A DNA stretch of 64,000 nt from a virus, in the IMG/VR virus record IMGVR_UViG_3300048625_000299, positions 170,865-234,864 of that record. The stretch is one strand, 5' to 3'. This document shows, in pieces, positions 36,025-56,666 of the stretch. How positions within the stretch are numbered: position 1 is the stretch's first letter; the number at the start of each line of letters is the position of its first letter. The notes beneath the pieces are model-generated. The model was not told the DNA's origin, did no database searches, and was given only the letters and a program-made list of their open reading frames with translations. The position numbers and the translations under genes were made by a program.

Positions 36025-36216
36025 ATGACACTCCAAATAAACCTAAAACAAATAAAGCCAGATAGCGCAGCTAATAATCAGCCGCTAGCGTGGAGTAATA
36101 CCGCAAACAGCTGGATAGCTTCATCCAATGTTGCTGTATCTGCTGTCACATATGCTGATGGCTCACGGCAGACGAATTACGTAGATCCGATTGCAATGGC
36201 TATTGCACTCGGGTAA
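36025..36216 (+). CDS. Small adapter protein, cassette A (paralogue of 42343 and 50148)
   Basis: A 63-residue protein with KQIKPDSAANNQPLAWSNTA and an end reading QTNYVDPIAMAIALG. The genes at 42343 and 50148 begin with related KLK or RLKPD motifs and end with TNLQVDPAG...AIxxG, so this is a paralogous family that opens each of three cassettes. It is the shortest copy, apparently lacking the middle of the 152-residue version. Likely a small connector of the fibre to the virion; inference. Confidence 0.7.
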   Translation: MTLQINLKQIKPDSAANNQPLAWSNTANSWIASSNVAVSAVTYADGSRQTNYVDPIAMAIALG

Positions 36217-36237
36217 TATACGAAGGATAAATAAAAC

Positions 36238-36564
36238 ATGGCTTCTATATTCAAATCATCCGTCGCAAAATCGGTAGGCACTAGCGCAAACTCGGTGTAC
36301 ACTGTTCCAGCTAATACAACTACAACTGTGATCGGTTGGAATCTGTGTAACATCACGGCGAGTCCTGTTACAGTCGATCTATACTTTACACGCAGCTCTG
36401 TGGACTACTACATCCTCAAGGGCACTACTGTTCCACAAGGCGGGGCTTTGGTCCCTGTGGGTGGAGATCAAAAATTAGTGCTTCAAGCTGCTGATATTGT
36501 AAAGGTAGTATCTGGAGCAGCTTCCTCAATCGACGCAACAGTTTCATATCTCGAGATTACATAA
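36238..36564 (+). CDS. Small beta-sandwich structural protein, cassette A
   Basis: This 108-residue protein shows SVYTVPANTTTTVIGWNLCNIT, then VDLYFTRSSVDYYILKGTTVPQGGALV and an end with ADIVKVVSGAASSIDATVSYLEI. Paralogues follow the adapter gene at 42619 and 50610. The pattern is common in fibre operons of T4-like phages. GAAGGA stands before its ATG, and its stop overlaps the next start (TAATG). Confidence 0.7.
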   Translation: MASIFKSSVAKSVGTSANSVYTVPANTTTTVIGWNLCNITASPVTVDLYFTRSSVDYYILKGTTVPQGGALVPVGGDQKLVLQAADIVKVVSGAASSIDATVSYLEIT

Positions 36565-37967
36565 TGTCATATATCGGAAACAGCTTAACTCAGCAGTCGT
36601 TCACTGGAGGCATGGACCAATTCAACGGTAATGCATCTAACACTGCGTTTGGATTGTCGAGAACAATCAATACTGCTTTCGATGTTGAAGTGTATGTTGA
36701 GAGTGTATTCCAGCGCCCTGGTATAGCATATAACGTATCTGCAAACACAATTACATTTACTTCCGCTCCGTCTGCTGGATCTAATAACGTCGTTGTGGTC
36801 TATAAGAATTTTACTGCGACGACTGTCGTTCCTGCTCCAGGATCCGTCACTCCATCATCGATTGCTGCTAATACAGTTCAGGCTAGTTTAGGGTATATTC
36901 CTGCTAATAGAGCAGGAGATACGTTTACAGGTGCAACTGCATTCAGTAACACTGTAACCGTAGCTAGCTCTGGCATCACATTTAACGATAACACCCAATT
37001 CAATACTGCTGTATCGTTCGGTATGCGCAATAAGATCATCAACGGTGGGCTTGATGTTTGGCAGCGTGCCACAAGTTTCACCGATTGGGGCAGCTTTGCG
37101 TACCTAGTCGACCGTATGCGCATCGGATATGATGGATCTCCTGCGTCTGGACGTACACTTACACGCCAGACATTTGACCCAGGCCAAACAGGCGTTCCGG
37201 AAGGCGATCCAAAGTACTACATGCAGTATGCATTCCCTTCATGTGGCACGCCAACGAACTACCTCCGCTGGGATATAGAAAGCGTTCGTACGCTTGCTGG
37301 TAAGCAGGCTACCTTCTCGTTTTGGGCAAGAGTTCCATCTGGAACAATGACCATTGGTGTAGCTATTTGCCAAGAATTTGGTAGCGGTGGTTCGCCGAGT
37401 AGTGGTGTGTATCCTACTGCTACAAACTATACAGTCACCACAACTTGGCAGAAGTTTGTATATACGACGACTGTTGCGTCTATTACTGGTAAGACTATCG
37501 GAACTAATAATGATGATAGAATTTGGCCAGCAGTGTGGTTCCCTCCTGCAGCAGCAGGCACAATACATATGGCCAACTTCCAACTAGAAGAAGGAACGGT
37601 AGCGACTCCGTTCGAGAAGCGCCCATATGGTTTGGAACTAGCGTTGTGTCAAAGATACTACTGTAAGATAACACCATCGACGAACTATGCACCGTATGCA
37701 ATGGGCCATGCATTCAACACCACGCAGTTCAGAACAATGATTAAGTTTCCACAAACTATGCGAGCCACACCAACGCTAGGATTTAGTGCAGCCAGCACAT
37801 TTCAGGTTGGTTGGTTGAACGTGTGTTCGGCTATTGCTCAGGCTGAGCGTGGAACTGATTATTGCTCTATCGACGCAACGACAACGGGATTAACATCGTT
37901 TGGGGCATACATGCTAACCAGTGCTGCAACAACAGCATCGTACATAACTGCAGATGCGGAGCTATAA
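36564..37967 (+). CDS. Tail fibre protein with GNGS and FKNRIING-type domains
   Basis: The 467-residue protein begins with a [12 protein letters not shown] domain (residues ~20-95), followed by the [17 protein letters not shown] motif of fibre shafts. The distal domain begins [17 protein letters not shown] and ends with [27 protein letters not shown] before a variable tip. The same distal domain appears in five other genes here; this is the most divergent copy. Likely a receptor-binding fibre. Confidence 0.8.
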
Positions 37968-37968
37968 A

Positions 37969-38127
37969 ATGTACAAGACATATCTCGTTCCAGGAAGAAC
38001 AGAACCAATAAATGTTATTCGACTATCTGACGGAGCATTCGTTCCTTTTGATCTTGCTAACGCGGATTATCGAGCATACCTTGAGTGGGTTGCTGAAGGC
38101 AACCAACCATTACCAGCGGACGAATAA
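37969..38127 (+). CDS. Tiny fibre-associated protein, YLEWLAEGN family
   Basis: Translation gives 52 residues ([16 protein letters not shown]..., ending [14 protein letters not shown]). It starts one base after the previous stop. Three paralogues lie at 40234, 46039 and 55391, each right after a fibre gene with the FKNRIING domain. The motif (D/N)YxxYLxWLAEGNxPxPA is found in proteins near fibre genes in many phages. Probably a fibre chaperone or capping peptide. Confidence 0.75.
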
Positions 38128-38130
38128 TAC

Positions 38131-38976
38131 ATGGCGATCGATAAACTAGGCGGCAATTCATTCAGCACTGGAGCTATTGCAAATAGCTTGGGATACACAC
38201 CAGCTAATAAGGCAGGCGATACATTTACTGGTGCAGTCACAGTCGGCAACACTACTATTAATGGAACATTGACTACCAATGGTGGAAACACTTCAATCAC
38301 CTATAATGGAAATTCTTCAACAAACTTTCCGACGATATTAAAATCGAGCGCACCCGACACGACTAGAGCAGCAGCGTTTGCTGGAGTAGGGCAACCATCG
38401 ACATGGTGGGTCGACACCACCAGCGGCCAAATAGCTGTGGGGGCGGTCGATGGCGTGTCGGCAGCGAGTGGTGGTGGCCTCACGATGTGGGTGAATAATG
38501 GCGTCGGGTGGATACAAGGGATGTTATTAGTTGGCGGCACGTCCGCGCCTGGTGCTGTATCGCTACCAAATCAGCCAATTATATCTGGACAAATTGGATC
38601 AGCATTAACCAACCCAGCGGCACCTCAGAAGCTAGCATTTGATGAGTTTTGGGTATCGAGGGGAATCACATACAGCACCTCAACACGTAGGTTCACTGTC
38701 CTCGTGGGAGGCACATACAGAATAACATTGAATCCTTTCTTTGCGTCTGGAGTATCAGCATGTCGTGTGCTTATAGGTATCAATACAGATACACCATCAG
38801 CATCAGCTCACTACGGTCATGCATATCGTGAAAGTGCTACGTATGATACAGGTTGTTTAGACACAGTAGTTACGTTGGCAGCTGGCGACTTCGTCACGTT
38901 CTACCTTTCACAAGGAACTCTGTATAACCAAACGACAGACAGATTCAATCAATTCTCAATAGCAAAAATTGCCTAA
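38131..38976 (+). CDS. Tail fibre-type receptor-binding protein with C1q-like C-terminus
   Basis: The 281-residue protein has the [17 protein letters not shown] shaft motif at residues ~23-40 and a beta-rich middle. The C-terminal domain (RRFTVLVGGTYRITLNPFF ... LAAGDFVTFYLSQGT) resembles the C1q/TNF-like trimeric fold that tips many phage fibres. Genes at 49088, 52332 and 53065 share the head and overall plan. Confidence 0.75.
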   Translation: MAIDKLGGNSFSTGAIANSLGYTPANKAGDTFTGAVTVGNTTINGTLTTNGGNTSITYNGNSSTNFPTILKSSAPDTTRAAAFAGVGQPSTWWVDTTSGQIAVGAVDGVSAASGGGLTMWVNNGVGWIQGMLLVGGTSAPGAVSLPNQPIISGQIGSALTNPAAPQKLAFDEFWVSRGITYSTSTRRFTVLVGGTYRITLNPFFASGVSACRVLIGINTDTPSASAHYGHAYRESATYDTGCLDTVVTLAAGDFVTFYLSQGTLYNQTTDRFNQFSIAKIA

Positions 38977-38992
38977 TGGTGGATATTAGTAT

Positions 38993-40234
38993 ATGGCATT
39001 AACAAAATTAGACCCGAGCGTAATTGGACAAGACTCAACTGGTGCAGGTAAGATTACATCTGCAGGGGGATCTTTGTCTATCGACTCTGCTGGCAATGTA
39101 AAGATTGCAAACAACACCGCCAACACTATTGCGATTACGTCTACTGGCGTGCTAACATTTAGCGATGCCAGCACACAGACAACAGCTGCCTCTGGGTTTG
39201 GCTTTAAGAATCGGATCATTAATGGGGCAATGGTGATCGACCAGCGTAATGCTGGTGCTGCTGTCGCGTATGGGTCTACTACGGTCGCTGGCAACTACTA
39301 TGGGTATAACATAGACCGTTGGTGGGCGCAGAGTTATTCTACCGCCGCTGGCAATGGTGCAGCGTTCACCATTCAACAATCGAGCGTTGCTCCTGCCGGA
39401 TTTGCCTCCTCTATGGCAGCCACAGTCACTAGTGCTCAAGCTACTCTTCAAAACGACAGCCTCTATCGAATACAACAGATAATTGAGGGATATAATGTGG
39501 CCGATTTAGGCTGGGGCACTTCTAGTGCATCATCGGCGACCTTATCATTTTGGGTGCGATCCAGCCTCACTGGCACATTCACTGGTGTTGTTAGTAATGA
39601 TGTGGATTATAGCTACTCGTTCACATACACGATCACGTCATCCAACGTATGGCAATATGTGTCGGTTACGATTCCTGGAGCTACTGCAGGGACATGGCCA
39701 AAGACAACCGGTAAAGGAATGCTATTGGTTTGGTGTCTAGGAGCATATTCAACTAGGCTCAACACTGCTAATACATGGACAGCAAGTGCTAGTTATCAAG
39801 GTGCGGTAGGACAGACCAATCTCATGGCGACTGTTGGATCTACCTTTTACATTACGGGCGTTCAGTTAGAAAAAGGATCGACGGCTACCAGCTTCGACTA
39901 CCGCCCATATGGACAAGAGTTGAATCTGTGTATGAGATACTATCAAATTGCTTCTTCTAGCGGAGCGATGGTAGGGACTCATGGGTATGTGCCAAGTAGT
40001 GGTGTCGTATATCGGCTCGGTTACGAATTCCCAGTGTACATGAGAGCGACCCCCACAGTAACTCTTGGCGTATATGTATGGGACGGATCTGCTGTGGTAG
40101 GGTCACTTGCGTTCAGCTCAAACTACACGAACTATCAAAGAATGGACGGAGACTATACCTGCGCGGCGGGATTGACTACTGGTCGGTATGCGAAAATGTA
40201 TAACGGAAATCTAACATTTAATGCGGAAATGTGA
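38993..40234 (+). CDS. Tail fibre protein with FKNRIING distal domain
   Basis: This 413-residue protein has a short head (MALTKLDPSVIGQDSTGAGK), a FSDASTQTTAASGFGFKNRIING junction (~residues 55-80) and the GA-x-VIDQRN domain. It ends with QLEKGSTATSFDYRPYGQELNLCMRYY and a variable ~90-residue tip. The two conserved borders around a variable core are typical of exchangeable receptor-binding domains. Its stop overlaps the next small gene. Confidence 0.8.
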   Translation: MALTKLDPSVIGQDSTGAGKITSAGGSLSIDSAGNVKIANNTANTIAITSTGVLTFSDASTQTTAASGFGFKNRIINGAMVIDQRNAGAAVAYGSTTVAGNYYGYNIDRWWAQSYSTAAGNGAAFTIQQSSVAPAGFASSMAATVTSAQATLQNDSLYRIQQIIEGYNVADLGWGTSSASSATLSFWVRSSLTGTFTGVVSNDVDYSYSFTYTITSSNVWQYVSVTIPGATAGTWPKTTGKGMLLVWCLGAYSTRLNTANTWTASASYQGAVGQTNLMATVGSTFYITGVQLEKGSTATSFDYRPYGQELNLCMRYYQIASSSGAMVGTHGYVPSSGVVYRLGYEFPVYMRATPTVTLGVYVWDGSAVVGSLAFSSNYTNYQRMDGDYTCAAGLTTGRYAKMYNGNLTFNAEM

Positions 40235-40404: not shown

Positions 40405-41976
40405 ATGTCATTAATCGGAAACCCATTAGTATCGACCAACTATCAAACTGACACGTTCAGTGGTAATGGCTCGACAGTAGCATACACTCTATCCGTTGCT
40501 CCTGCATCAGCTGCATCCATTGCTGTATACATCAGCGGTCTATATCAGACTCCTGGTTCAGCATACACAATTACAGGCACGACACTGACATTCACTGGTG
40601 CTCCTCCTACAGGTACCGGCAACATTCTTGTTCTTCATCTTGGCATCAAGAGTTCCACTCTAGTTCCTGTTGATCAGTCGATTGCTCCGAGCATGTTGAA
40701 TAATGCAAACGTTATTTACTGGAGTGTGGCAAATACAAACGTTGGTATCGGCAACACTGCTCCTGGAGCTCCATTAACGATTGGTTCTGCTAGTGGCACA
40801 TTTACTAACCCGTTGTTCCAAGCTGCTGGTAGCGCAAATAGCTGGATTCAGTTGAATGCACAGAATTTAAATAACGGCAATAATGCTTCTACTGACCTGA
40901 TCCTCGCACGTAGCGATGGCAATGATACTGCTGGTTATATCGATATGGGCATCAACAGTAATACTTACAGCCAAGCTGGATATAGTATTATGACGCCAAA
41001 CAGTGGCTACTTGTTTACAAACGGTGGCGACTTGGTTATGGGCACACAGACTGCTCACAACATCCTGTTCCATACTGGCAACACTACTAACACATCGGAA
41101 CGTCTACGTATCGACACTAGTGGTAATATGGCCCTTGGTTCAAGATTTGCTACTGGCGTAGGGGCATATGGTCGTGGCATTCACATTGGTAATGGATCAG
41201 ATGACCTAGCAGCATTGTGGTCACAACCAATCAACGTGAACGATCACCGCGTAACGCTGACCAATAACTTGTACAATGCAGGCGTTGGTGTATTCAAATA
41301 CTACGCTAACAACCAGAGCGCGTCGATGTATCAGCAAATTGCAGGGCGACATGAGTTTTATGTTGCTGGCACAGGTACACCAGACTCAGTCGTGTCGTTC
41401 GGTAATGCTGCACTTACACTACAATCAGACAGAGCAGTATATTCGCCAGCAAACTACTATACAGCAGCAGACGGTATTGTTTCGATGGCTTCTGCGTGGA
41501 CACATTCGAATGGTGGTTATACGAATGCGGGAAATGCGATAAACTTCAGAAAATTTTATTCACACGGAACAGCAAATAGTGCTGAATATAACTTCACCAT
41601 TGATATTGGTACGGATGGAGTGAGCACACCTACACAGTATTGGTACTTGTCCTTGCCGACTGGAGTTACTACGTATATGGGACTGTTTAACGTAGAGCTG
41701 TGGGTTGGTGGTTGGAACTGGGGGCAATCGGTAGGTTATAAGCGCTGGATCGTCGGGTCGACTGCAAACGTATGGTCGGTGATAGCAGCAGAAACCCAGG
41801 ATAAAACAAACATGGCTTCGATTAGCTGCTTTGCCACCCCAGTGGGATCAACTAGCTGCAAGATAGGGTTCCAGAACTCTGCGGGGCGAAATGGAATGGC
41901 GGTCAGAATCACTACAATGGGCGACCCACTATCGACTGTTACAAATACATACCAAACAAATACTAACCCGTTCTAA
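40405..41976 (+). CDS. Tail fibre protein with GNGS head and NNGNNASTD module
   Basis: A 523-residue protein whose head has FSGNGSTVAYTLSVAP, followed by DxYxxSGxTLTF-type beta structure. Residues ~110-240 carry NVGIGNTAPGAPLTIGSA, NLNNGNNASTDLILARSD and HNILFHTGNTT. This module is shared with the gene at 46206. The distal half is unique. It would be a trimeric fibre with a receptor-binding end. The start directly follows the previous stop. Confidence 0.75.
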   Translation: MSLIGNPLVSTNYQTDTFSGNGSTVAYTLSVAPASAASIAVYISGLYQTPGSAYTITGTTLTFTGAPPTGTGNILVLHLGIKSSTLVPVDQSIAPSMLNNANVIYWSVANTNVGIGNTAPGAPLTIGSASGTFTNPLFQAAGSANSWIQLNAQNLNNGNNASTDLILARSDGNDTAGYIDMGINSNTYSQAGYSIMTPNSGYLFTNGGDLVMGTQTAHNILFHTGNTTNTSERLRIDTSGNMALGSRFATGVGAYGRGIHIGNGSDDLAALWSQPINVNDHRVTLTNNLYNAGVGVFKYYANNQSASMYQQIAGRHEFYVAGTGTPDSVVSFGNAALTLQSDRAVYSPANYYTAADGIVSMASAWTHSNGGYTNAGNAINFRKFYSHGTANSAEYNFTIDIGTDGVSTPTQYWYLSLPTGVTTYMGLFNVELWVGGWNWGQSVGYKRWIVGSTANVWSVIAAETQDKTNMASISCFATPVGSTSCKIGFQNSAGRNGMAVRITTMGDPLSTVTNTYQTNTNPF

Positions 41977-41980
41977 TAAA

Positions 41981-42286
41981 ATGAGATTACGCATTCACTA
42001 TACACCACTCGTGCTGGAAACCGTTATTGCTGAAGGTAAGACTGAGCAGGATTATTATGCAGCAGTCGATACCATACGATGTTCCATACTGAACTCTATT
42101 CGTGCAGAAAGAACGCTACTATTGGCCGAATCGGACTGGACTCAATTCAATGATTCACCACTAACGCCTGAGAAAAAGGTTGAGTGGGCTACGTATAGAC
42201 AGCAATTGAGAGATATTACCGATTCGATTGACTTGTCGAATCCATGCATCATCGATGATGATTTCTTTCCGACTAAACCTGTTTGA
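41981..42286 (+). CDS. Tail fibre assembly chaperone-like protein (PF16778 type)
   Basis: I place the start at the ATG at 41981, just after the previous stop; 101 residues starting MRLRIHYTPLVL. It contains SIRAERTLLLAESDWTQFNDSPLT and ATYRQQLRDITDSID, the chaperone pattern also present at 31337. It closes cassette A and likely helps fold the 523-residue fibre just upstream. Confidence 0.75.
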   Translation: MRLRIHYTPLVLETVIAEGKTEQDYYAAVDTIRCSILNSIRAERTLLLAESDWTQFNDSPLTPEKKVEWATYRQQLRDITDSIDLSNPCIIDDDFFPTKPV

Positions 42287-42292: not shown

Positions 42293-42300
42293 GATAAATA
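42293..42300 (+). promoter_or_regulatory. Late-promoter-like octamer (GATAAATA), cassette B
   Basis: GATAAATA lies 42 bases before the first gene of cassette B (42343), identical to the octamer before cassette A. Confidence 0.55.
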
Positions 42301-42342: not shown

Positions 42343-42615
42343 ATGTCAAAGTTGCGGATAGAAAAACTCAAGCAAGGAACGTCATCTAATAATGATGTCC
42401 TGGTCTATAGAAATGATATTGGCACCTATCAGGGCCAGTCTAATCTTACGCTGACTGCTGTTACAGTGTCTGCCAATGCAACAGTCGGCAATCTAAATAC
42501 CACAGGAACTGTTACTGCAAACGTTCTTTCCGTTTCAAACGTAGCTCAAACACAAACAAACCTGCAAGTCGATCCTGCAGGTTCTGCGTTCTTAAACGCA
42601 ATCATATACGGGTAA
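42343..42615 (+). CDS. Small adapter protein, cassette B
   Basis: The product has 90 residues, beginning SKLRIEKLKQGTSSNNDVLVYRN and ending TQTNLQVDPAGSAFLNAIIYG. The same C-terminal motif ends the paralogue at 50148, and a reduced version ends the copy at 36025. First gene after a late-promoter octamer and 3 bases before the small beta protein, as in the other cassettes. Confidence 0.7.
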   Translation: MSKLRIEKLKQGTSSNNDVLVYRNDIGTYQGQSNLTLTAVTVSANATVGNLNTTGTVTANVLSVSNVAQTQTNLQVDPAGSAFLNAIIYG

Positions 42616-42618: not shown

Positions 42619-42939
42619 ATGGCTTCTACACAAACCAGTTATCTCAATTCAGCAGTTGGCACAACGCCAGCTACTATTTTTACCGCTACGGCCACGACTG
42701 CTTTGGTAGGATGTCAGGTCGCCAACATTTCTGGCGCTGCTATTACTATCGATGTTTATATTACTCGCAGCGCAACCAATTACTACCTAATCAAGGGCGC
42801 AGTGATACCTGTCGGAGGTGCGCTTGCTCTGATCGGCGGTGATGTAAAACATTTCGTGCTGAACGGGGATGTGTTGAAGTGCGTCTCCAGCACAGCATCG
42901 AGTGCTGACTTTGTCACTAGCGCAGCGGTAGGTGTCTAA
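42619..42939 (+). CDS. Small beta-sandwich structural protein, cassette B
   Basis: A 106-residue paralogue of the products of 36238 and 50610. It shares VDVYITRSATNYYLIKGAVIP-type strands (here I-D-V-Y-I-T-R) and GGALALIGGDVK. Stop and next start overlap (TAATG). Likely an adapter between the small N-terminal protein and the fibre that follows. Confidence 0.7.
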   Translation: MASTQTSYLNSAVGTTPATIFTATATTALVGCQVANISGAAITIDVYITRSATNYYLIKGAVIPVGGALALIGGDVKHFVLNGDVLKCVSSTASSADFVTSAAVGV

Positions 42940-43532
42940 TGGCATACATAGGCGCTAGTGGCGCATTAACCAACCAGGCAACAGTAACTGACGTCTTTAA
43001 CGGCAACGGCTCCAACACTCAGTTCACTCTATCCCGCACAGTATATAATACTCGTGATATCGAAGTCGTTGTTAACAACGTCCAACAAAGCCCATTCGAT
43101 GGTAGTTATTCTGTTAGTGGCCAGACCCTAACATTCTCTGGCGCTCCAACAGCTGGTGCAAATAACATTTACGTCATCTACCAGGCTGGCGTGATTGGCG
43201 TAGTGTCGCCGACTGATAACTCAGTTACAGCTAACTCAATCCAGTCCAACGCAGTAACAACAGCTAAGCTATCTGATAGTGGTGTGACGGCTGGTACGTA
43301 TGGTAATACAACCGTTATACCTGTAATTACAGTAGATGCAAAGGGACGTACGACTAGCGTAACGACTGCTCCTGTAAACCAAGCAAATGGCGTTATTCAC
43401 GAATTCAGTACAACAGTAACTTCTAGCTATACATTATCGACAGGTAAGAATGCTATGTCGGTAGGTCCTGTTACTGTAGCAAACGGATCAGCAGTTACTG
43501 TTCCACCAGGTCAAAGATGGGTGATCTTGTAA
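42939..43532 (+). CDS. Short fibre protein with GNGS head
   Basis: The 197-residue protein has FNGNGSNTQFTLSRTVYNTRD, then VVVNNVQQSP and SGQTLTFSGAP, the same head domain as in 36564, 40405 and 50947. It then has VTAGTYGNTTVIPVITVDAKGR and ends NAMSVGPVTVANGSAVTVPPGQRWVIL, a common phage tail-tip ending. It contains no large receptor-binding domain. One base separates it from the next gene. Confidence 0.75.
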   Translation: MAYIGASGALTNQATVTDVFNGNGSNTQFTLSRTVYNTRDIEVVVNNVQQSPFDGSYSVSGQTLTFSGAPTAGANNIYVIYQAGVIGVVSPTDNSVTANSIQSNAVTTAKLSDSGVTAGTYGNTTVIPVITVDAKGRTTSVTTAPVNQANGVIHEFSTTVTSSYTLSTGKNAMSVGPVTVANGSAVTVPPGQRWVIL

Positions 43533-43533: not shown

Positions 43534-44049
43534 ATGGCACTAATCAACACAACTACAACTGGCAACTATGGCACAGCATATGCTGGCGATAGCTCTGGTG
43601 CTCTAACAATACAGCAAGACGGCGTACAAATAACTAAGCTGACAAAGAACCCAATTGTCCATGCCAAGTTAGCAGCTTTGTATAATATCACTAGCGCAAC
43701 GTTCACTAAAATAAAATTAGACGCCAAGGTGATCGATACACAAAATTGCTTCGATACCACAAACTATAGATTCACACCCAACGTTCCTGGATATTATAAC
43801 GTCACTACTACATTAGCGAACAACGGCGCAACTTCACCATCGCGGTTAATTAATCTTTTGTATAAAAACGGTACCGCAAATAGTTGGTTGTTTATGCAAG
43901 ACCAGACTACAGGATACACAGCAACCGGTAGCAAGCTCGTTTATATGAACGGCACGACAGATTATCTTGAATTGTATGGTTATATGGTTGCAACGACAGC
44001 GGAAGTTTCTGGCGCCGAATTCTTTGCCCATCTTGTGGAGGCGGTATGA
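43534..44049 (+). CDS. C1q-like tail fibre tip protein
   Basis: A 171-residue protein whose C-terminal ~115 residues have the C1q/TNF-like signature: KIKLDAKVIDTQNCFDTTNYRFTPNVPGYYNV, strands around LLYKNGTAN, and YMNGTTDYLELYGYM. This fold forms trimers. The gene at 44206 is a paralogue. A tiny XkdW-like gene overlaps its stop. Confidence 0.75.
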   Translation: MALINTTTTGNYGTAYAGDSSGALTIQQDGVQITKLTKNPIVHAKLAALYNITSATFTKIKLDAKVIDTQNCFDTTNYRFTPNVPGYYNVTTTLANNGATSPSRLINLLYKNGTANSWLFMQDQTTGYTATGSKLVYMNGTTDYLELYGYMVATTAEVSGAEFFAHLVEAV

Positions 44050-48743: not shown

Positions 48744-49088
48744 ATGGCACATTTTGCAAAAGTATTAGACGGCAAAGTCACACAAGTGATTGTTGCTGAA
48801 CCAGAGTTCTTTGATACATTCGTAGACTCAAGTCCTGGTGAATGGATTCAAACTAGCTACAACACGAGAGGCGGAGTACACATACTTGGCGGGACCCCAC
48901 TACGTATGAATTTTGCTGGAGTTGGTTTCGTATATGACAAAGCGAAGGATGCATTTATTCCACCACAACCCTATGGCAGCTGGACGCTCGATGAAAGTAC
49001 ATGCACATGGGCCCCTCCGGTCACATACCCAGACGGCGGCAAGAAGCATGCCTGGAGCGAGACTGAACAACAATGGGTTGAAGTATAA
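48744..49088 (+). CDS. Conserved small phage protein (MAHFAKVLDG family)
   Basis: A 114-residue protein with SYNTRGGVHILGGTPLRMNF, GFVYDKAKDAFIPPQPYGSW and a C-terminal WSETEQQWVEV. It is widespread in T4-like phages of aquatic bacteria, usually next to fibre genes, with no proven role. It follows the glycine-rich adhesin and may serve it. Its stop overlaps the next start (TAATG). Confidence 0.8.
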   Translation: MAHFAKVLDGKVTQVIVAEPEFFDTFVDSSPGEWIQTSYNTRGGVHILGGTPLRMNFAGVGFVYDKAKDAFIPPQPYGSWTLDESTCTWAPPVTYPDGGKKHAWSETEQQWVEV

Positions 49089-49822
49089 TGGCACTAAGTA
49101 AAATCACAGCAGATTCGATTGCAGCAAATGCAGTCAATGCCAACTCAATAGGGTACACACCAGCAAACAAAGCAGGCGACACGTTCACTGGCGACGTAGC
49201 TGTCTCTGGCTCTGGCTTAAGATCCAGAATTACCGATGGCACTAACTATCTAACAATGGGCCAATGGGACGCGGCGACGAATCGCATCGAGTCATCTGGT
49301 GGCCGCGACATGCTTATCGTTGCGTATGGTGCTACTCAGCAATTACGGCTACAACATGCAACTACTGGAGATGCGCTACGAATAAATGCAAATAGCCATG
49401 TGACTAAACCATACCAGCCATCATTTTATGCATACCACAGCACCAGCCCGACTCCGACCAACGGTTCATTATTTGTATTTGATAGCACCAACTACAACAG
49501 CGGCATGTATAGCACTAGCACTGGGCGAATGACAGCACCAGTTGCAGGTAGATATTTTGTGTCGGCGGCGTTTAGAGTCAACAATCAGAATGCTGGGTAT
49601 TATGCGCAGACATTGCTGTTTGTGAACGGGGCATCAACATGGCAAGGATCATACCACAATAGCACAATGAGCTCGGGCAGTGCAGGATATATGACAGTAG
49701 TATACACAGGTATTTTATCTTTGGGCCAAGGCGACTACGTTCAGCCATACTGGACTGTACAAGGCGGCACAACTGTGTTTTCAGGAACAGAGTCCTGGTT
49801 TTCTGGGCACTTGCTGGGATGA
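49088..49822 (+). CDS. Tail fibre-type protein with C1q-like C-terminus
   Basis: The 244-residue protein has the head MALSKITADSIAANAV and IGYTPANKAGDTFTGDV. The C-terminal half carries GRYFVSAAFRVNNQNAG, LLFVNGAST and LGQGDYVQPYWTVQGGTTV, ending SWFSGHLLG, the pattern of C1q-like trimeric tips. Paralogue of 38131, 52332 and 53065. It is the last gene of cassette B. Confidence 0.75.
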   Translation: MALSKITADSIAANAVNANSIGYTPANKAGDTFTGDVAVSGSGLRSRITDGTNYLTMGQWDAATNRIESSGGRDMLIVAYGATQQLRLQHATTGDALRINANSHVTKPYQPSFYAYHSTSPTPTNGSLFVFDSTNYNSGMYSTSTGRMTAPVAGRYFVSAAFRVNNQNAGYYAQTLLFVNGASTWQGSYHNSTMSSGSAGYMTVVYTGILSLGQGDYVQPYWTVQGGTTVFSGTESWFSGHLLG

Positions 49823-49866: not shown

Positions 49867-50136
49867 ATGTCGCAAACATACACAATTACTCTTTCTGCAG
49901 CAGAAGACAAGGCACTTGGCTATGTCGCGTTCTCCCAACAAGACTGGATCGACAACGCAATCCACGAACGTTGCCGTATTGCTATCGAAGAAATCGTAGC
50001 AGCAGAAGTACAACGCAAGCTTGCAGCTGGCGAAACAATCTCTGGATCTAAGGAAGATATTGTTGTTGCAGCTCCAATCAAGTCTGCAGCTGAACGTCAA
50101 GCTGAGGCTGAAGCAGCACAACCTAACGCCCAATAA
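49867..50136 (+). CDS. Small conserved helical phage protein
   Basis: An 89-residue protein with YTITLSAAEDKALGYVAFSQ, WIDNAIHERCRIAIEEIVAA and a charged Ala/Glu-rich tail. It belongs to a family commonly found in tail fibre regions of aquatic phages. It is mostly helical and probably a small virion or chaperone protein. AAGGA stands 6-7 bases before the ATG. Confidence 0.7.
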   Translation: MSQTYTITLSAAEDKALGYVAFSQQDWIDNAIHERCRIAIEEIVAAEVQRKLAAGETISGSKEDIVVAAPIKSAAERQAEAEAAQPNAQ

Positions 50137-50147: not shown

Positions 50148-50606
50148 ATGCGTAAACTAGACCTCACCAGATTAAAACCAGATGGCGTTGCAAACAATGC
50201 CATGCTGTCGTTTTCTAATACAGCAAACGCATGGGTTGCTACCAACACTCTCCGTGTAGTCGATGCGACGATCACTGGTAACCTAACAGTAACTGGTACC
50301 ACGACATACATCAACACTACTAATCTGGATGTTGGTGACAACATCATTACATTGAACGCAGATGTTGGATCTGGCGTATCGCCTACTGAGAATGCTGGCA
50401 TTAGCATCAACCGCGGATCTTCAGCAAACGTTGCGTTGCTGTGGGACGAATCGGTTGATCAATTTACGGCTTCTGCTAACCTAAATACAGTAGGTACTTT
50501 ATCAGCTAACGTCTTGACTGTTTCTAATGTTAGCGTGACTCAAACAAACTTACAAGTCGACCCTGCTGGCATGGCGACTGCAATGGCGATCGTCTTTGGC
50601 GGATAA
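50148..50606 (+). CDS. Adapter/fibre-base protein, cassette C
   Basis: This 152-residue protein is the longest member of the cassette-opening family. It begins RKLDLTRLKPDGVANNAMLSF, has a TTYINTTNLDVGDNIITL ... ENAGISINRG module, and ends TQTNLQVDPAGMATAMAIVFGG. The middle module is shared with the two giant fibre genes at 18275 and 23989, linking the three cassettes to the main fibre. Confidence 0.7.
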   Translation: MRKLDLTRLKPDGVANNAMLSFSNTANAWVATNTLRVVDATITGNLTVTGTTTYINTTNLDVGDNIITLNADVGSGVSPTENAGISINRGSSANVALLWDESVDQFTASANLNTVGTLSANVLTVSNVSVTQTNLQVDPAGMATAMAIVFGG

Positions 50607-50609: not shown

Positions 50610-50936
50610 ATGGCAAATACATTCAAAAATAAAGGCTTAGCTCTTTCATCGACTTCTAGAACGGACTTATACACTTGTCCAGTATCTACCGCTGCCGTTG
50701 TTCATACGCTCAATATCGCCAACGTCAATGGAACATCGTCGGCAAGCATTACGATTGAATTGTATGATGCTTCTGCATTGACATACTATAAGATAGGATA
50801 TCTAATTCCTGTTCCTGGCGGATCGTCATACTACTTTGACAAACCGCTCAACTTAGAAGCTGGCGATAAGATAGTATTGACTGCTTCTATAGCCAATTAT
50901 TTGGATGCTGTAGCGTCTATTCTAGAAATTTCCTAA
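50610..50936 (+). CDS. Small beta-sandwich structural protein, cassette C
   Basis: The 108-residue protein is the third paralogue of the family at 36238 and 42619: ITIELYDASALTYYKIGYLIPVPGG and LEAGDKIVLTASIANYLDAVASILEI. It is more divergent in the strands but has the same length and position. Confidence 0.7.
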   Translation: MANTFKNKGLALSSTSRTDLYTCPVSTAAVVHTLNIANVNGTSSASITIELYDASALTYYKIGYLIPVPGGSSYYFDKPLNLEAGDKIVLTASIANYLDAVASILEIS

Positions 50937-50946: not shown

Positions 50947-52323
50947 ATGGGCTACGGCGGAAAACAAGCAGCCAGATCTGGCGACGTTCGCAGATTCAAT
51001 TTTATAGGCAACGGATCGAATACAGCTTTCGATCTAGGATTCTCGCCTGCAACACAAAACCAATTAGTCGTAACGATCAACGGCTTGGTTCAACACTATG
51101 ATGCGTTTAACGTATCCGGCTCGACCCTAACATTTACAGGTACTCCTGCATCCGGTGATTACATCCAAGTGACCGCAATCGTAGATGCTGTTGGCATTGC
51201 AGCGATTCCGGACGGCGCTATTGCAAACGTCAGCACATTAGCCGTCAGCAGCACCGCTACATTCGCAAACACAACCACACATGCTGGCTTGGCAACATTT
51301 GCCAATACTACGCACACTGGCGCTGCTGTGTTTGCGAATACCGTTACCGTTGCCAACTCTGGTGTCACGTTTGGGGATGCTAGCATTCAAACAACTGCGG
51401 CCTCTGGGTTCGGGTTTAAGAATCGTATCATCAATGGTCTTTTTGATTTTTGGCAACGTGGTACGAGCGGCACTGGTGCTGTTTATGTCGCTGACCGTTG
51501 GACGACTGACCAAGTAAATACGACACAAGCACGTTCGACAGACGTTCCTAGCGGCATTGGTGTAGACTACTCCTTGCAGGTGTCGGGTTCATCGGGAACA
51601 GTTGCCACTGCACAAAAGATCGAGTCGAAGAACGTACGTGACTTGGCAGGTCAGCAAGTCACCGTGTCGTTCTATGCAAAAGCCGCGAGTGGTTCGCCGA
51701 CATTAAATTTCGATGTGCGGTACGCAACGGCATTGGATAACTTTGCAGGCATGACTATCATGCAAGGTTCTACTGTAGCGCTCTCGACTACATGGACAAG
51801 ATACAGCTTTACGTTTAGTGCACTCAGCACGAACGTAGTGAACGGTCTAGCGTTGTTTTTTTACAACACATCCACACAGACCTTCCTACTGTCACAGGTC
51901 CAGCTAGAAAAAGGCTCAACAGCAACGAGCTTTGACTACCGCCCGTATGGGACTGAGTTGGCATTGTGTCAGAGATACTATGAGAAGTCTTTTGACGATG
52001 GTGTTGCTCCTGCAGATGGAGCAACAGGCGATCGTAGAGCAGGTCCTGGCGCAGTATACAATGGTACTAATTGGGATGGAGCATTCGTGTCTTATAAAGC
52101 ATCGAAGCGGGTGATTCCAACTGTTACGTTTTATCGTCCAAACTTCGGCACAGGTACAGGTGTATGGTTATTATATGAAAGCGGCACCACCTGGACGGCA
52201 CACACAATGATAGCGGCGAGTAGTGGCGTATCGGGGTTCGTTCCTGGATGTACACTCACCACTGGTAGTAATGGTCAGGCTGTTATGTCGTCTGGACATT
52301 GGGCGGCTGCGGCTGAACTGTAA
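50947..52323 (+). CDS. Tail fibre protein with GNGS head and FKNRIING distal domain
   Basis: A 458-residue protein. AAGGAG precedes the ATG. The head has FIGNGSNTAFDLGFSP and SGSTLTFTGTPASGDYI, then a FANTTTHAGLATFANTT repeat shaft, and from residue ~158 FGFKNRIINGLFDFWQRG. The border motif [27 protein letters not shown] precedes a variable ~110-residue tip. Together with 36564 it links the GNGS head and the FKNRIING domain in one chain. Confidence 0.8.
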   Translation: MGYGGKQAARSGDVRRFNFIGNGSNTAFDLGFSPATQNQLVVTINGLVQHYDAFNVSGSTLTFTGTPASGDYIQVTAIVDAVGIAAIPDGAIANVSTLAVSSTATFANTTTHAGLATFANTTHTGAAVFANTVTVANSGVTFGDASIQTTAASGFGFKNRIINGLFDFWQRGTSGTGAVYVADRWTTDQVNTTQARSTDVPSGIGVDYSLQVSGSSGTVATAQKIESKNVRDLAGQQVTVSFYAKAASGSPTLNFDVRYATALDNFAGMTIMQGSTVALSTTWTRYSFTFSALSTNVVNGLALFFYNTSTQTFLLSQVQLEKGSTATSFDYRPYGTELALCQRYYEKSFDDGVAPADGATGDRRAGPGAVYNGTNWDGAFVSYKASKRVIPTVTFYRPNFGTGTGVWLLYESGTTWTAHTMIAASSGVSGFVPGCTLTTGSNGQAVMSSGHWAAAAEL

Positions 52324-52331: not shown

Positions 52332-53063
52332 ATGGCACTAACTAAAATTACATCCAAGGTATTGCCCAACACCGCTATTACTGGCGCATTGGGATATACG
52401 CCTGTCAACAAGGCTGGTGATAATATTACTGGAAAGTTGCTTGTTAATGACAGCAACTCATCGTATACAAGTGGCGACGCTAACGGATATCCGAGATTCA
52501 CTGGTACGTCTAGTAGTGCGCAAGTCGGATTGTTCCGCGGCGGCGATTCTGGTGCTGGTGGAATGTATGTGGGTGCTGACAATGTATCTTTCTCAGTGTG
52601 GGATAATACATTCACCCGCCGACTAACAGTCACTCAGGGGGGTGCGGTCACCATGCCAACTCAGCCGTTCGTTAGATTGGTTGGAGCAGGAAACTCAACA
52701 AAAACCGCTGCGAACGCTGTAGTTAACACATTTATTGTAGCCGAGTATTCAGGCACCGCATCTAATTGGACAGCATCTACAGGTCGCTATACAGCACCTG
52801 TAGCTGGCAGATACCAGATATCGATGATCGGTAACATGAATACAGACTCATCAACATTATCATTGCAAGTACGTAAGAACAGCGCCGCCACTGTAGCGTA
52901 TGTGTATCAACAAAACTACACAACTTCTGCGTGGGTATCACCAGGAGGGACGGTAATTACTACGCTCGCGCAAAACGACTATATTGATTTTGTCAATCTG
53001 TCTGGTAATATCGGGTTCGATAGCAGTAGCTGGTTTAACCTCAGCATAACATTGGTAGGCTAA
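52332..53063 (+). CDS. Tail fibre-type protein with C1q-like C-terminus
   Basis: The 243-residue protein has the head MALTKITSKVLPNTAITG with LGYTPVNKAGDNITGKL. A middle beta domain (SVWDNTFTRRLTVTQGG) leads to a C-terminal tip with GRYQISMIGNMNTDSSTL, SLQVRKNSAATV and LAQNDYIDFVNLSGNIG. Paralogue of the genes at 49088 and 53065. Confidence 0.75.
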   Translation: MALTKITSKVLPNTAITGALGYTPVNKAGDNITGKLLVNDSNSSYTSGDANGYPRFTGTSSSAQVGLFRGGDSGAGGMYVGADNVSFSVWDNTFTRRLTVTQGGAVTMPTQPFVRLVGAGNSTKTAANAVVNTFIVAEYSGTASNWTASTGRYTAPVAGRYQISMIGNMNTDSSTLSLQVRKNSAATVAYVYQQNYTTSAWVSPGGTVITTLAQNDYIDFVNLSGNIGFDSSSWFNLSITLVG

Positions 53064-53064: not shown

Positions 53065-53721
53065 ATGGCACTAACTAAAATCACAGCAACTAATATCGGA
53101 TACACGCCAGTCAATAAGGCTGGCGACGTTATGTCCGGAGCTCTTACCGTGCCAAACCTTGGCGTTGGTACTACATCAGACGCATCGAATGCCAATAAGA
53201 CAATCACATACCAGAACTCAGGAAAGAATTGGTATGTGGGGTTACGCGGAGATACGTCCAATGCATGGAGTATTGCCGACGATTCAGCGCATCGAATGAT
53301 GGTCGATACCAATGGTCGCATCACGATGCCATATCAGCCAAGTTGGTGTGTTGAGTACTACGGCATGACTGTTTCAGCAAACACAACATACAATTACACC
53401 GGCGGTACTGTATTCACTAATAATGGTTCCTACTACTCAACGAGCACTGGCAGGTTCACTGCTCCTGTTGCAGGATATTACTTAGTGAGTGCATCGATCG
53501 AACAAAGCACTTCGTCAGGCACTACTGGGTCGGTGGTGGTAAATAAGAATGGGAGTAGCCAGTTCCAAGCTCTTGCGTACAGCGCTATATACAACAGTGG
53601 TTCTTTGACTGGCATAGTATACTGTGCGGTAAATGACTACCTTACATTATCATCAAATGGCAACAATGGCCTTTCATATAATGTGTACACGACGCGCTTT
53701 ACGGGCCATTTAATAGGATAA
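53065..53721 (+). CDS. Tail fibre-type protein with C1q-like C-terminus
   Basis: A 218-residue protein whose start follows the previous stop by one base, with the head MALTKITATNIGYTPVNKAGD. The middle reads NSGKNWYVGLRGDTSNAW, a domain for which cyanophage relatives exist. The tip has GYYLVSASIEQSTSSG and VNDYLTLSSNGNNG and ends TRFTGHLIG. Confidence 0.75.
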   Translation: MALTKITATNIGYTPVNKAGDVMSGALTVPNLGVGTTSDASNANKTITYQNSGKNWYVGLRGDTSNAWSIADDSAHRMMVDTNGRITMPYQPSWCVEYYGMTVSANTTYNYTGGTVFTNNGSYYSTSTGRFTAPVAGYYLVSASIEQSTSSGTTGSVVVNKNGSSQFQALAYSAIYNSGSLTGIVYCAVNDYLTLSSNGNNGLSYNVYTTRFTGHLIG

Positions 53722-53725
53722 TATA

Positions 53726-55390
53726 ATGAGCTACTCAGGCGTACAACCAACATATGGGACGTTTCCAAGTGATATGTTCACTGCGAACGGTTCCAACACA
53801 GTTTTCACATTATCATCTGTTCCAGGAAACAAGGCAGCGTTGCTCGTTTCTATTGACGGCGTTCGCCAACAAACAGATGCATATTCATACTCAGCAAACA
53901 CACTAACCTTCAGTGAAGCGCCGGCAAGTGGCGCAGTTATTGAAGCTGTTAACATGGGCTCTCGTGCCGATGTCATCATTACGGACGGCGTATATCGCAA
54001 GTCACAGTTTACAGCAACAGCTGGACAGACGACATTTAACATCTCTACTGGATACACGGTTGGTTTCGTTGATGTATACCTGAACGGCATTCGCTTGGTC
54101 GTTGCTGATGACTTCGTTGCAACAGACGGATCCAACATCGTGTTAGCACTAGCTGCCGCACTAGGCGATTCAGTCGAGGTTGTGGCATATGGAACATTCA
54201 ACGTTGCTAATGCATTGCAGAAGTCTGGCGATACTATGTCAGGCAACTTGGTAATATCTGGCACAACAAGCCATGTTGGTACTGCATCGTTTTCAAATAC
54301 AGTCACTGTTGCTAACTCTGGCGTCACGTTCGCGGACGCATCTGTTCAGACGACTGCTGCTTCTGGTTTTGGATTTAAGAACCGCATTATTAACGGCGCG
54401 ATGATGATTGACCAGAGGTACAGCGGAGGTGGACCGAATTCGATTACTGGAGGAAGTTACAGCGTCGATAGATGGCACCACTATTATTCTGGACCGAGCT
54501 ACTCGACACGCCAATCCTCAACTGCACCTGCAGGTTTCAGTAATAGTTTGTTGATGACGAATACGGGTGCATCTTCTACTCCAACTTATTGCTTCTTCGG
54601 ACAGAAGATCGAAGGTCTGAATGTTGCTGACTTGAATTGGGGGTCAGCCGATGCTGCAACAGTAACGGTGTCTTTCTGGACACGCTCAAGTATTGCAGGG
54701 ATATATTCAATATCTGTGACGAACAATGCAGGCGATAGATCATATCCTATACAGTACACAATCAACGCTCCCAATACATGGGAATATAAAACAATCACCG
54801 TCCCTGGCGATACAACTGGTACATGGACAAAGGACAACACAGCTGGCATCCATCTAAGATTCAATCTGGGTTCTGGTCCATCTAGATTGGCACCGAGCGG
54901 ATCGTGGCAGGCTGGAAATTATGATGGCGCAACGACGTCCACTGGTTCATCATCGTGGGCTAATGCACTAGGTGCGACGTTCTATATCACTGGCGTCCAG
55001 GTGGAAAGGGGGTCGACGGCAACTGGATTCGACTATCGTCCATACGGTACTGAGTTGGCTTTGTGCCAGCGATATACAGTTGGCTACAGTGGCGGCGCAG
55101 GTTATCGTATTGGTTGGGGGTTTTCATATAGTGCCACCGCAGGATATTGTTTATTCAATCTTCCTGCAACTATGCGCACCGCTCCTTCTATTGAAGGCAC
55201 AGCATCCTTGCTGGCGTTTAATGATGCAATCGCTCAATACATAACAACAGTTGCACCGACAATCAATTCAGCACAAGAAAACTTCGTTAGCATAACTGCC
55301 ACAGGGGCTTCTGGAATGACAGCATTCAGACCAGCTCAGGTATATTTTGCGAACGCATCTAGCAAGCTGATTCTTTCTTCGGAGCTGTAA
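53726..55390 (+). CDS. Tail fibre protein with GNGS head and FKNRIING distal domain
   Basis: At 554 residues this is the longest member of the FKNRIING family. The head has FTANGSNTVFTLSSVPGN; a second domain contains FTATAGQTTFNISTGYTVGF, as in 46206. The shaft motif is QKSGDTMSGNLV. FGFKNRIINGAMMIDQRYSGG begins the distal domain (residue ~213), bordered by [26 protein letters not shown], then a ~110-residue tip. Confidence 0.8.
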   Translation: MSYSGVQPTYGTFPSDMFTANGSNTVFTLSSVPGNKAALLVSIDGVRQQTDAYSYSANTLTFSEAPASGAVIEAVNMGSRADVIITDGVYRKSQFTATAGQTTFNISTGYTVGFVDVYLNGIRLVVADDFVATDGSNIVLALAAALGDSVEVVAYGTFNVANALQKSGDTMSGNLVISGTTSHVGTASFSNTVTVANSGVTFADASVQTTAASGFGFKNRIINGAMMIDQRYSGGGPNSITGGSYSVDRWHHYYSGPSYSTRQSSTAPAGFSNSLLMTNTGASSTPTYCFFGQKIEGLNVADLNWGSADAATVTVSFWTRSSIAGIYSISVTNNAGDRSYPIQYTINAPNTWEYKTITVPGDTTGTWTKDNTAGIHLRFNLGSGPSRLAPSGSWQAGNYDGATTSTGSSSWANALGATFYITGVQVERGSTATGFDYRPYGTELALCQRYTVGYSGGAGYRIGWGFSYSATAGYCLFNLPATMRTAPSIEGTASLLAFNDAIAQYITTVAPTINSAQENFVSITATGASGMTAFRPAQVYFANASSKLILSSEL

Positions 55391-55549
55391 ATGTATAAGT
55401 TAACACAACCAATAGTAGGACTGCCTGTGTCCGCGGCAATTCGACTTGATGATGGAACCTGCTTCCCCTTCGATTCTGCCAACAGAGATTACCAACAATA
55501 TCTAGAATGGTTAGCCGAAGGCAACGAACCACTACCAGCGGACGAATAA
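55391..55549 (+). CDS. Tiny fibre-associated protein, YLEWLAEGN family
   Basis: Encodes 52 residues ([19 protein letters not shown] ... [15 protein letters not shown]). It starts flush after the previous stop, and one base separates its stop from the next start. Fourth member of the family. Confidence 0.75.
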
Positions 55550-55550
55550 T

Positions 55551-56666
55551 ATGTCAAGAGCAAGACAAGTATCAAAATTAATCGGTACATCTAATACCGC
55601 AACAGTCGCTAATACAGGAATTGTGTTTAGCGACACGAGCGTACAGACTACTGCACCATCAAGCTTTGGCTTTAAGAATCGCGTCATTAATGGGGCGTTT
55701 GCGATCGATCAACGCAACAGCGGTGCTGCTAAAACTAACCAAGACAACAGCACGAGTCCGTTTATTGTTGATAGATTCCGGTTTGGGGGTAGTGGTACTA
55801 CATTCAAAGCAACTATCCAGCAGGTGGTAGATGCTCCTCCAGGGTTTGTTAATTCTGGCAAAGTCACCATCACAACAAGTGAAACTCTATCTGCTGGAAA
55901 AGTAAACGTATTATCGCACATCATCGAGGGACTGAATGTTGTCGATTTTGCGTGGGGGACTTCGTCGGCCGCTCCTGCTACACTATCATTCTGGGTGAAG
56001 ACTAGCTTAACTGGCACACATGCTGTGGCGATTCGGTCGGATGGAGGAGGTACTGCATACAGTTATGTTGCATCTTATACCGTATCTCAAGCAAACACCT
56101 GGGAGTATAAAACAATCACCGTTCCAGGTCCCACTACAGGCACGTGGGGCGGTTTGACTGGCTCCAATTTGTATGGGATTAGATTGGATTGGAACCTTGG
56201 CTCCTATACAGACGTCCAAGCTACAGCCAACACTTGGACCAGTGGTGGATACTTTACGGTGGCTGGAGCAGTCCAATTAATCACCAATGTGGGTGCCACA
56301 TTCCAAATCACAGGTGTTCAGTTAGAAAAGGGGTCGACGGCCACTGCTTTTGACTACCGCCCATATGGAGACGAGATTCGCCTTTGTCAGAGATATTTTG
56401 AGATAATGCCAGGTGTAGCTGATGTATACACAGGAGTATCAGCTAGTATATCACAATATCAGATGTTTTATATGGTCGAAAAAAGAGCGAATGCTACTGT
56501 ACAGATATATGGGGTTGGAGGGTACCCCAATTCAGCTGGGTATTATGATAAGGATGGTGTTGGCAATACTGCAGCCAATATCTCATCGACGAGTCGATTT
56601 GGATTTCGTGTATACAATATGTCGGGTTCTGGGCAGTTTGCATACACAGCATCCGCCGAACTATAA
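55551..56666 (+). CDS. Tail fibre protein with FKNRIING distal domain
   Basis: This 371-residue protein has a short head (RARQVSKLIGTSNTATVAN) and FSDTSVQTTAPSSFGFKNRVING, so the shaft is minimal as in the 44930 gene. The border motif QLEKGSTATAFDYRPYGDEIRLCQRYF is followed by a short tip. Last gene before the neck operon. Confidence 0.8.
   Translation: MSRARQVSKLIGTSNTATVANTGIVFSDTSVQTTAPSSFGFKNRVINGAFAIDQRNSGAAKTNQDNSTSPFIVDRFRFGGSGTTFKATIQQVVDAPPGFVNSGKVTITTSETLSAGKVNVLSHIIEGLNVVDFAWGTSSAAPATLSFWVKTSLTGTHAVAIRSDGGGTAYSYVASYTVSQANTWEYKTITVPGPTTGTWGGLTGSNLYGIRLDWNLGSYTDVQATANTWTSGGYFTVAGAVQLITNVGATFQITGVQLEKGSTATAFDYRPYGDEIRLCQRYFEIMPGVADVYTGVSASISQYQMFYMVEKRANATVQIYGVGGYPNSAGYYDKDGVGNTAANISSTSRFGFRVYNMSGSGQFAYTASAEL

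What the first reader, a model, noticed from the sequence alone, without database searches (positions are those of the whole stretch)
36025..56666. Three tandem fibre cassettes with the same three-gene head
Cassettes starting at 36025, 42343 and 50148 each begin with a small KLK/RLKPD adapter, then a ~107-residue beta protein, then a fibre with a GNGS-type head. The first two have identical GATAAATA octamers upstream. Each cassette then carries a different collection of tip proteins. This looks like repeated duplication of a whole adhesin module and could give the phage three physically separate receptor-binding branches besides the long fibre.
Basis: partly seen in the sequence, partly recalled or inferred. 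Interest (0 to 1): 0.78.

Follow-up and report, generated by a model that had tools for sequence, protein, structure and literature searches.

The report
Three phage fibre cassettes, shared connector
A large T4-like phage carries three copies of a fibre-building cassette, each with its own shaft, a small connector protein of a widespread but unstudied family, and a changeable set of cell-binding tips, which may let one virus particle display three kinds of adhesin.

Summary
Cassettes at 36025, 42343 and 50148 each start with a shaft/adapter (a), a ~107-aa beta protein (b) and a fibre (f) whose head resembles the attachment domain of T7 gp17. Each also has a second YIG-headed fibre, C1q-type and carbohydrate-binding tips, and assembly-type small genes. 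GATAAATA is the phage's late promoter. All three b genes are conserved in place in related phages (orthologues 81-93%, paralogues 30-45%). A more distant T4-like relative has one cassette in the same slot, and there 'a' is a 1,935-aa fibre. So the 'adapters' are shortened fibre shafts, and all three are shortened in this phage. b1 and b2 group together, but one origin for b1+b2+b3 is rejected (AU p=0.004), so simple repeated duplication is not supported for cassette 3. b belongs to a large family (PHROG 'unknown function') in myo- and podophages. The gene before b nearly always ends in a short tail (..A.A.AIALG). I read this as a plug fitting a jelly-roll connector (b), used in series in other phages and in parallel here. 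Binding, virion location and host range are untested. New variant of a known kind.

The parts
35987..35994 (+). GATAAATA late-promoter motif, 38 nt before a1
   Evidence: NATAAATA is the published late promoter of S-PM2 (PMC2984593)
36025..36216 (+). a1: shortened fibre shaft, 63 aa; LK head and C-terminal tail DPIAMAIALG
36226..36233 (+). GATAAATA motif 12 nt before b1
36238..36564 (+). b1: 108-aa jelly-roll protein, proposed connector
   Evidence: phrog_1276 1.4e-9; AF2 pLDDT 92.4; family alignment
36564..37967 (+). f1: fibre with T7-gp17-like head (res. 15-86) and CBM-like region (about 150-350)
   Evidence: phrog_4492 5e-62; structural matches 8dsp_C Z 7.8 and 1h6x Z 8.8 (low-confidence model outside the head)
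37954..38127 (+). 57-aa ORF after f1, probable fibre chaperone
   Evidence: phrog_20370 8e-9, unknown function
38131..38976 (+). Tip protein, GYTPANKAGD repeat and C1q-like C-terminus
   Evidence: (PF00386 8e-4, below cut-off)
38993..40234 (+). Tip fibre of the KNRIING/carbohydrate-binding type
   Evidence: 42% to g449 over 382 aa
40231..40404 (+). 57-aa ORF, probable fibre chaperone
40405..41976 (+). g404: second YIG-headed fibre of cassette 1
   Evidence: 39.5% to g462 over 425 aa; phrog_18673 1.8e-10
41978..42286 (+). Tail assembly chaperone
   Evidence: PF16778 4.5e-14, phrog_4912 9e-14
42293..42300 (+). GATAAATA late-promoter motif, 50 nt before a2
42343..42615 (+). a2: shortened shaft, 90 aa, tail DPAGSAFLNAIIYG
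42619..42939 (+). b2: 106-aa connector-family protein
42939..43532 (+). f2: short fibre with GNGS head
43534..44049 (+). C1q-like tip protein
   Evidence: PF00386 5e-4, below cut-off
44046..44222 (+). XkdW-like small protein
   Evidence: PF09636 6.9e-8, above cut-off
44206..44727 (+). C1q-like tip protein, paralogue of 43534-44049
   Evidence: 32%, E 1e-19
44724..44903 (+). XkdW-like small protein
   Evidence: PF09636 1.7e-4, below cut-off; 61% to the previous one
44930..46036 (+). KNRIING/carbohydrate-binding-type tip fibre
46039..46206 (+). 55-aa ORF, probable fibre chaperone
46206..47429 (+). g462: second YIG-headed fibre of cassette 2
47485..47739 (+). 84-aa protein, conserved in relatives including the single-cassette one
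   Evidence: 90-93%, 49-50%
47742..48737 (+). Glycine-rich tip protein
   Evidence: PF21722 8e-14
48744..49088 (+). 114-aa phrog_7759 protein
   Evidence: E 7.7e-30
49088..49822 (+). GYTP plus C1q tip protein
   Evidence: PF00386 1.4e-6, above cut-off
49867..50136 (+). 89-aa protein, 29 nt after CATAAATA at 49838, upstream of a3
50148..50606 (+). a3: shortened shaft, 152 aa, tail DPAGMATAMAIVFGG
50610..50936 (+). b3: 108-aa connector-family protein, separate branch of the family
   Evidence: phrog_26609 7e-7; tree and AU test
50947..52323 (+). f3: fibre with GNGS head and CBM-type C-terminal part
   Evidence: PF02018 3.5e-6, above cut-off; phrog_4492 6e-53
52332..53063 (+). GYTP tip protein
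53065..53721 (+). GYTP plus C1q tip protein
   Evidence: PF00386 2.5e-8
53726..55390 (+). g537: second YIG-headed fibre of cassette 3, T7-tail-like head and KNRIING C-terminus
   Evidence: PF03906 1.7e-5, 25.0 bits against cut-off 25.2
55391..55549 (+). 52-aa ORF, probable fibre chaperone
55551..56666 (+). g555: last tip fibre, KNRIING type, MSRARxVS head
   Evidence: 47% to g537 over 272 aa

Best explanation
Each cassette encodes one fibre assembly built from interchangeable segments. Protein a is a trimeric-type shaft: its LK head attaches to the virion and its short hydrophobic C-terminal tail plugs into b (inferred). Protein b is a small jelly-roll connector, probably a trimer (fold predicted, oligomer inferred). 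YIG-headed fibres (f and a second one per cassette) attach distal to b and end in carbohydrate-binding, C1q-like or glycine-rich tips, with small chaperones encoded beside them. The cassette occupies the tail-fibre slot just before gp13 (shown). In a single-cassette relative its shaft is a full-length long fibre (shown). This phage's lineage has multiplied it to three, with cassette-specific heads and tails that keep the sets apart, so one virion probably carries three kinds of short, branched adhesin besides the long fibre (inferred).
For: Three b genes, each orthologous and in place, in window/G001, G002 and G003/G004. One cassette in the same slot, upstream of gp13, in T4-like relative G012 with a 1,935-aa a protein ending DPAGTAFLNALIYG, then a 69% b2. 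The tail/b link: of 273 ORFs of 100 aa or more ending in the tail, 218 lie directly before b and 53 one gene before, across 32 clusters of b (70% identity) and unrelated N-terminal parts. In the whole 234,864-b genome only the three a genes, of 1,025 ORFs, end this way, and exactly six YIG heads exist, two per cassette. In-series use in G020: long-fibre segment - b - 690-aa segment with tail - b - tip, and in phage Melnitz. b model pLDDT 92.4, jelly-roll, matching a trimeric phage cement protein, Z 10.2. f1 head matches T7 gp17 N-domain, Z 7.2-7.8, and Carin 1 fibre; CBM22/CBM4 matches Z 8 or more. Tips differ between relatives while heads stay.
Against: No interaction, oligomeric state or virion location was measured. 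Tail and b adjacency could reflect an operon habit. Co-divergence of tail and b was no stronger than that of a-head and b. Loci for the tail count were chosen because they hold b. The LK head's docking site was not identified. f1 apart from its head is poorly modelled (mean pLDDT 54). b also resembles nucleoplasmin and spore-appendage subunits at similar Z, so the fold does not name a function.
Confidence: 0.58

Rival explanations
1. The three cassettes are alternatives for the same virion site: the LK-headed shafts compete, so particles carry mixtures of adhesins or one dominant type, as a phenotypic-mixing or reserve device.
For: All three a proteins share one head type and no second docking protein was recognised. 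In relatives the shafts are about 70-76% identical between paralogues and of similar length.
Against: Heads and tails have stayed cassette-specific across phages, which shared docking would not require. All three appear to be under late promoters.
Confidence: 0.25
2. The cassettes join end to end or hang on the long fibre: b proteins act as serial hinges of one composite fibre, like T4 gp34-gp35-gp36-gp37.
For: Serial use of b is encoded in G020 and Melnitz. In G012 the a protein before b is a 1,935-aa fibre.
Against: In the window no protein other than the a proteins carries the tail, and the a proteins have LK heads rather than YIG heads, so no serial chain can be read from the genes.
Confidence: 0.12
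3. b is not a connector but a chaperone or tip/decoration protein made next to each shaft; the tail is a trimerisation or release signal.
For: Genes beside fibres are often chaperones; the jelly-roll fold also occurs in cement and decoration proteins; b is annotated only as structural or hypothetical.
Against: b is present when the shaft and tip have nothing else in common, and a read-through a-b fusion exists in L094. Separate chaperone-type genes are also present.
Confidence: 0.2
4. Simple tandem duplication of one cassette produced all three.
For: b1 and b2 group (93/80), and cassettes 1 and 2 share gene order including g404/g462.
Against: One clade for b1, b2, b3 is rejected, AU p 0.004; b3 sits with L146/L149 sequences (96/92). 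Only about 110 columns, so deep branches are uncertain.
Confidence: 0.15

Closest known systems
Triad 'fibre - ~108-aa structural protein - tail fibre' of Rhizobium RHph_TM30 and I1_18, Ochrobactrum vB_OspM_OC, Delftia PhiW-14, Yersinia YerA41, HMO-2011 and pelagiphages
   Same: Same b family and, in nearly all, the same AIALG-type tail on the preceding protein and a YIG-headed fibre after b
   Different: One b in five and two in three of the eight isolate genomes scanned whole; three in parallel with LK-headed shafts seen only in the window's clade
Branched tailspike complexes of Ackermannviridae (CBA120 TSP1-4)
   Same: Several receptor-binding proteins per virion, modular heads and swappable tips (PMC11414711, PMC8825819)
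   Different: There, N-terminal domains of the spikes hold them together in one branched complex; here a separate small protein and a C-terminal tail are proposed, with three sets
T4 long tail fibre gp34-gp35-gp36-gp37
   Same: Fibre segments joined by smaller connector subunits; same tail-fibre role
   Different: No match to gp35 or gp36 appeared in the Pfam/PHROG scans made here; b is a 108-aa jelly-roll
T7 gp17 N-terminal attachment domain
   Same: Fold of the f1 head, residues 15-86; PF03906 just below cut-off in g537
   Different: In T7 it binds the tail (own knowledge); here it would bind a connector or shaft
Multi-fibre jumbo phages RaK2 and phiKp24
   Same: Large genomes with many fibre genes and branched adsorption apparatus (PMC10253068, PMC9700779)
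   Different: RaK2 fibres carry polysaccharide-degrading domains; here CBM, C1q and glycine-rich tips, with no depolymerase domain among the Pfam hits

Membership tests
b family (phrog_1276 / phrog_26609, 'unknown function') | Full-length profile match of a ~108-aa protein | tested here: met
   b1 1.4e-9 over 1-107, b3 1.6e-7; b2 has no PHROG match but 41% to b1 (E 3e-26)
b family (phrog_1276 / phrog_26609, 'unknown function') | Same predicted fold as other members | tested here: met
   BFVD top hits, many of them ~110-aa phage virion proteins, TM up to 0.96
a-b-f triad of other phages | Gene before b ends in the A.A.AIALG-type tail | tested here: met
   a1, a2, a3 and no other ORF in the genome
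a-b-f triad of other phages | Fibre after b begins M-x-Y-I-G | tested here: met
   f1 MSYIG, f2 MAYIG, f3 MGYGG; 22 of 31 clusters in other phages
T7 gp17-type tail fibre head | N-domain fold | tested here: met
   f1 residues 15-86, Z 7.2-7.8 to 8dsp, 7ey9, 7boz; Z in this range needs caution
T7 gp17-type tail fibre head | Pfam PF03906 above gathering score | tested here: not met
   Only g537, 25.0 against 25.2 bits; other heads no match
T4 hinge connectors gp35/gp36 | Sequence homology to gp35 or gp36 | tested here: inconclusive
   No such family among Pfam or PHROG hits of a and b; gp35/gp36 not compared directly
Ackermannviridae branched tailspike complex | T4 gp10-like XD domains in spike N-termini | tested here: inconclusive
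   Not among Pfam hits, but no dedicated XD profile was run
T4-type late promoter | NATAAATA upstream of late genes | tested here: met
   15 on + strand, 2 on -, about 8 expected per strand; 12-50 nt before a1, b1, a2 and two other genes; also before a1 and cassette 2 in relatives (PMC2984593)
Any | Presence in virions and receptor binding | not testable with these tools
   Uncultured phage

The most novel reading that the evidence does not exclude
The AIALG-type tail and the b jelly-roll are a general plug-and-connector for building phage fibres, shared by myo- and podophages, that lets unrelated shafts and tips be joined in series (G020, Melnitz) or in parallel sets with matched, cassette-specific plugs (this phage).
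Probability: 0.45. Interest if true: 0.7.

Novelty: new variant of a known kind. Interest (0 to 1): 0.55.

Why it matters
If right, one short peptide and one small protein explain how many aquatic phages swap fibre parts across tail types, and give a sequence rule for finding which shaft carries which tip. The three-set arrangement would be a natural case of parallel adhesin sets on one particle, useful for asking how many receptors a large phage can address at once. It also gives a function to a family that databases list as unknown.

Tried and rejected
V22 gp25 (107 aa, same gene position in a published host-recognition module) was tested as a b relative: no match, and by eye it looks like a lipoprotein. 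Nucleotide search of the region in the phages collection: no match. Sequence search of b in the PDB: nothing meaningful. Mantel test of tail against b divergence: rho 0.25, but a-head against b is 0.23, so it does not single out the tail. The idea that the ~55-aa ORFs follow every KNRIING fibre: only four of six in the window, so not a rule. The split a2 in G002 is caused by unknown bases in the contig, not a broken gene. Rfam and tRNA scans: nothing. The three-copy state is not unique: the separate record G020 also has three b copies, at least two of them in series. Paper searches in the library did not turn up a description of the b family or the tail.

Full report
Setting. The window is the last 64 kb of a 234,864-base virus record. 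The genes after the fibre region are a T4-type block: gp13, gp14, gp15, gp17, gp18 and gp19 all match their families, for example TerL 3e-71 and sheath 6e-129. The fibre cassettes lie between a long-fibre region with a run of metabolic genes and gp13.

Observation. The cassettes share more than the triad. Each has exactly two proteins starting M-x-Y/L-x-G (f1 and g404, f2 and g462, f3 and g537), C1q-like or GYTP proteins, at least one KNRIING/carbohydrate-binding-type fibre, and small assembly-type genes: XkdW-like PF09636, Phage_tail_APC PF16778, and four 52-57-aa ORFs of phrog_20370. C1q, CBM_4_9 and glycine-rich matches exceed Pfam cut-offs in several tips.

Promoters. GATAAATA is a form of NATAAATA, the published late promoter of cyanophage S-PM2 (PMC2984593). 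The window has 15 on the + strand and 2 on the - strand, where about 8 per strand are expected; most genes of the window read on the + strand, so the asymmetry is only supporting. Sites lie 38, 12 and 50 nt before a1, b1 and a2, and before g449 and g498. Related contigs have NATAAATA motifs at corresponding places for a1 and for cassette 2.

Conservation. A profile of b finds three copies in G000, G001 (identical to the window), G002, G003 and G004 (the last two alike in this region), each in the same order. Orthologues are 81-93% identical, paralogues 30-45%. Fibre heads are kept while tips change: f1 residues 1-149 are 63-74% identical and the rest has no match; g537 residues 1-215 are 75% identical to G003, with a different tip.

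Origin. A 164-kb T4-like relative, G012 (gp13 69%, TerL 59%, sheath 62%), has one cassette in the same slot: a 1,935-aa a protein ending DPAGTAFLNALIYG, b2 (69%), an f2-like fibre, g474 and g462 homologues, a fibre with a g555-like head (by eye), one more protein, then gp13. So cassette 2 looks ancestral. The tree of b joins b1 with b2 (93/80), whereas b1+b2+b3 as one clade is rejected (AU p=0.004; 110 columns). Cassette 3 therefore probably came from another branch of the family.

The shafts. In relatives a1, a2 and a3 are about 260-350 aa. They carry an alanine-rich ATAYxNA repeat and a beta domain that are 70-76% identical between paralogues of one genome, no less than between orthologues (71-75%), whereas heads are 62-68% between orthologues and 22-41% between paralogues. 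In the window all three shafts have lost most of this part (63, 90, 152 aa). Matched shaft lengths within a genome suggest that the three assemblies must reach a similar distance; this is inference from few genomes.

The plug and the connector. b belongs to a family spread over myo- and podophages. In 32 clusters the gene before b mostly ends in a hydrophobic tail of the type A.A.AIALG although the rest of that gene is unrelated from phage to phage. By a strict pattern 241 of 319 b genes have it directly upstream; of 273 tail-bearing ORFs of 100 aa or more, 218 are adjacent to b and 53 one gene away, where the intervening gene is usually a ~150-aa protein or, in a few, a GIY-YIG endonuclease. 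The loci were selected for b, so the count is of linkage, not of frequency. In the whole window genome the pattern, which was drawn up after seeing these tails, picks out only a1, a2 and a3 among 1,025 ORFs. One contig has a read-through fusion of tail and b (L094). In G020 and Melnitz the order shaft+tail, b, segment with head and tail, b, tip reads as a serial fibre.

Structure. b1 is predicted with high confidence (pLDDT 92.4) as a nine-strand jelly-roll. Closest solved structures are a trimeric phage cement protein (7dou, Z 10.2), plant HDT nucleoplasmin-like domains (Z about 10) and spore-appendage subunits (Z about 9); none names a function. The f1 model is poor except for its head, which matches the T7 gp17 N-domain (Z 7.2-7.8) and the Carin 1 phage fibre; the middle gives CBM22/CBM4 matches at Z 8-9.

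Mechanism. Shown: gene order, conservation, families, predicted fold of b, tail-b linkage, single-cassette relative. Inferred: the tail plugs into b, b is trimeric, YIG heads dock distal to b, LK heads dock on the virion, and three parallel branches form. Rivals are competing alternatives at one site, a serial fibre, or b as chaperone.

Comparison and verdict. Multi-adhesin phages are known (Ackermannviridae PMC11414711, RaK2 PMC10253068, phiKp24 PMC9700779). The parallel use of three sets sharing a small connector was not found in the searched literature, which is not exhaustive. I rate it a new variant of a known kind.

Noticed in passing
L015 9322-9993; L123 and L141 between tail gene and b: GIY-YIG homing endonuclease ORFs sit exactly between the shaft gene and b; the one in L015 itself ends QAAIALG, as if the codons for the tail had been re-created at its end.
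   Followed up: partly
L094 251-1213: Natural read-through fusion of a tail-bearing fibre protein to b (320 aa).
   Followed up: partly
L178, L182, L187-L231 (about 150-aa ORF upstream of b): A ~150-aa family (MADDA..LPDEIAKT..) stands between the tail gene and b in many marine contigs; possibly a second connector.
   Followed up: no
window 7219-8022: An anchor-like protein (DTFQSWVDKTN) follows the 2,186-aa baseplate-type protein; in G006, Melnitz and I1_18 its counterpart carries the AIALG tail and is followed by b, but here the tail is absent.
   Followed up: partly
window 9047-17859 and 31759-35953: Metabolic-type genes, among them a radical-SAM-like protein (34511-35953) and a 2OG-oxygenase-like protein (33958-34521), both named by eye, are set among the fibre genes; a similar mix occurs in Synechococcus phage S-SRM01.
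   Followed up: no
G020 (L341), minus strand: A 180-kb phage contig with three b copies, at least two of them in series along what reads as one long fibre.
   Followed up: partly
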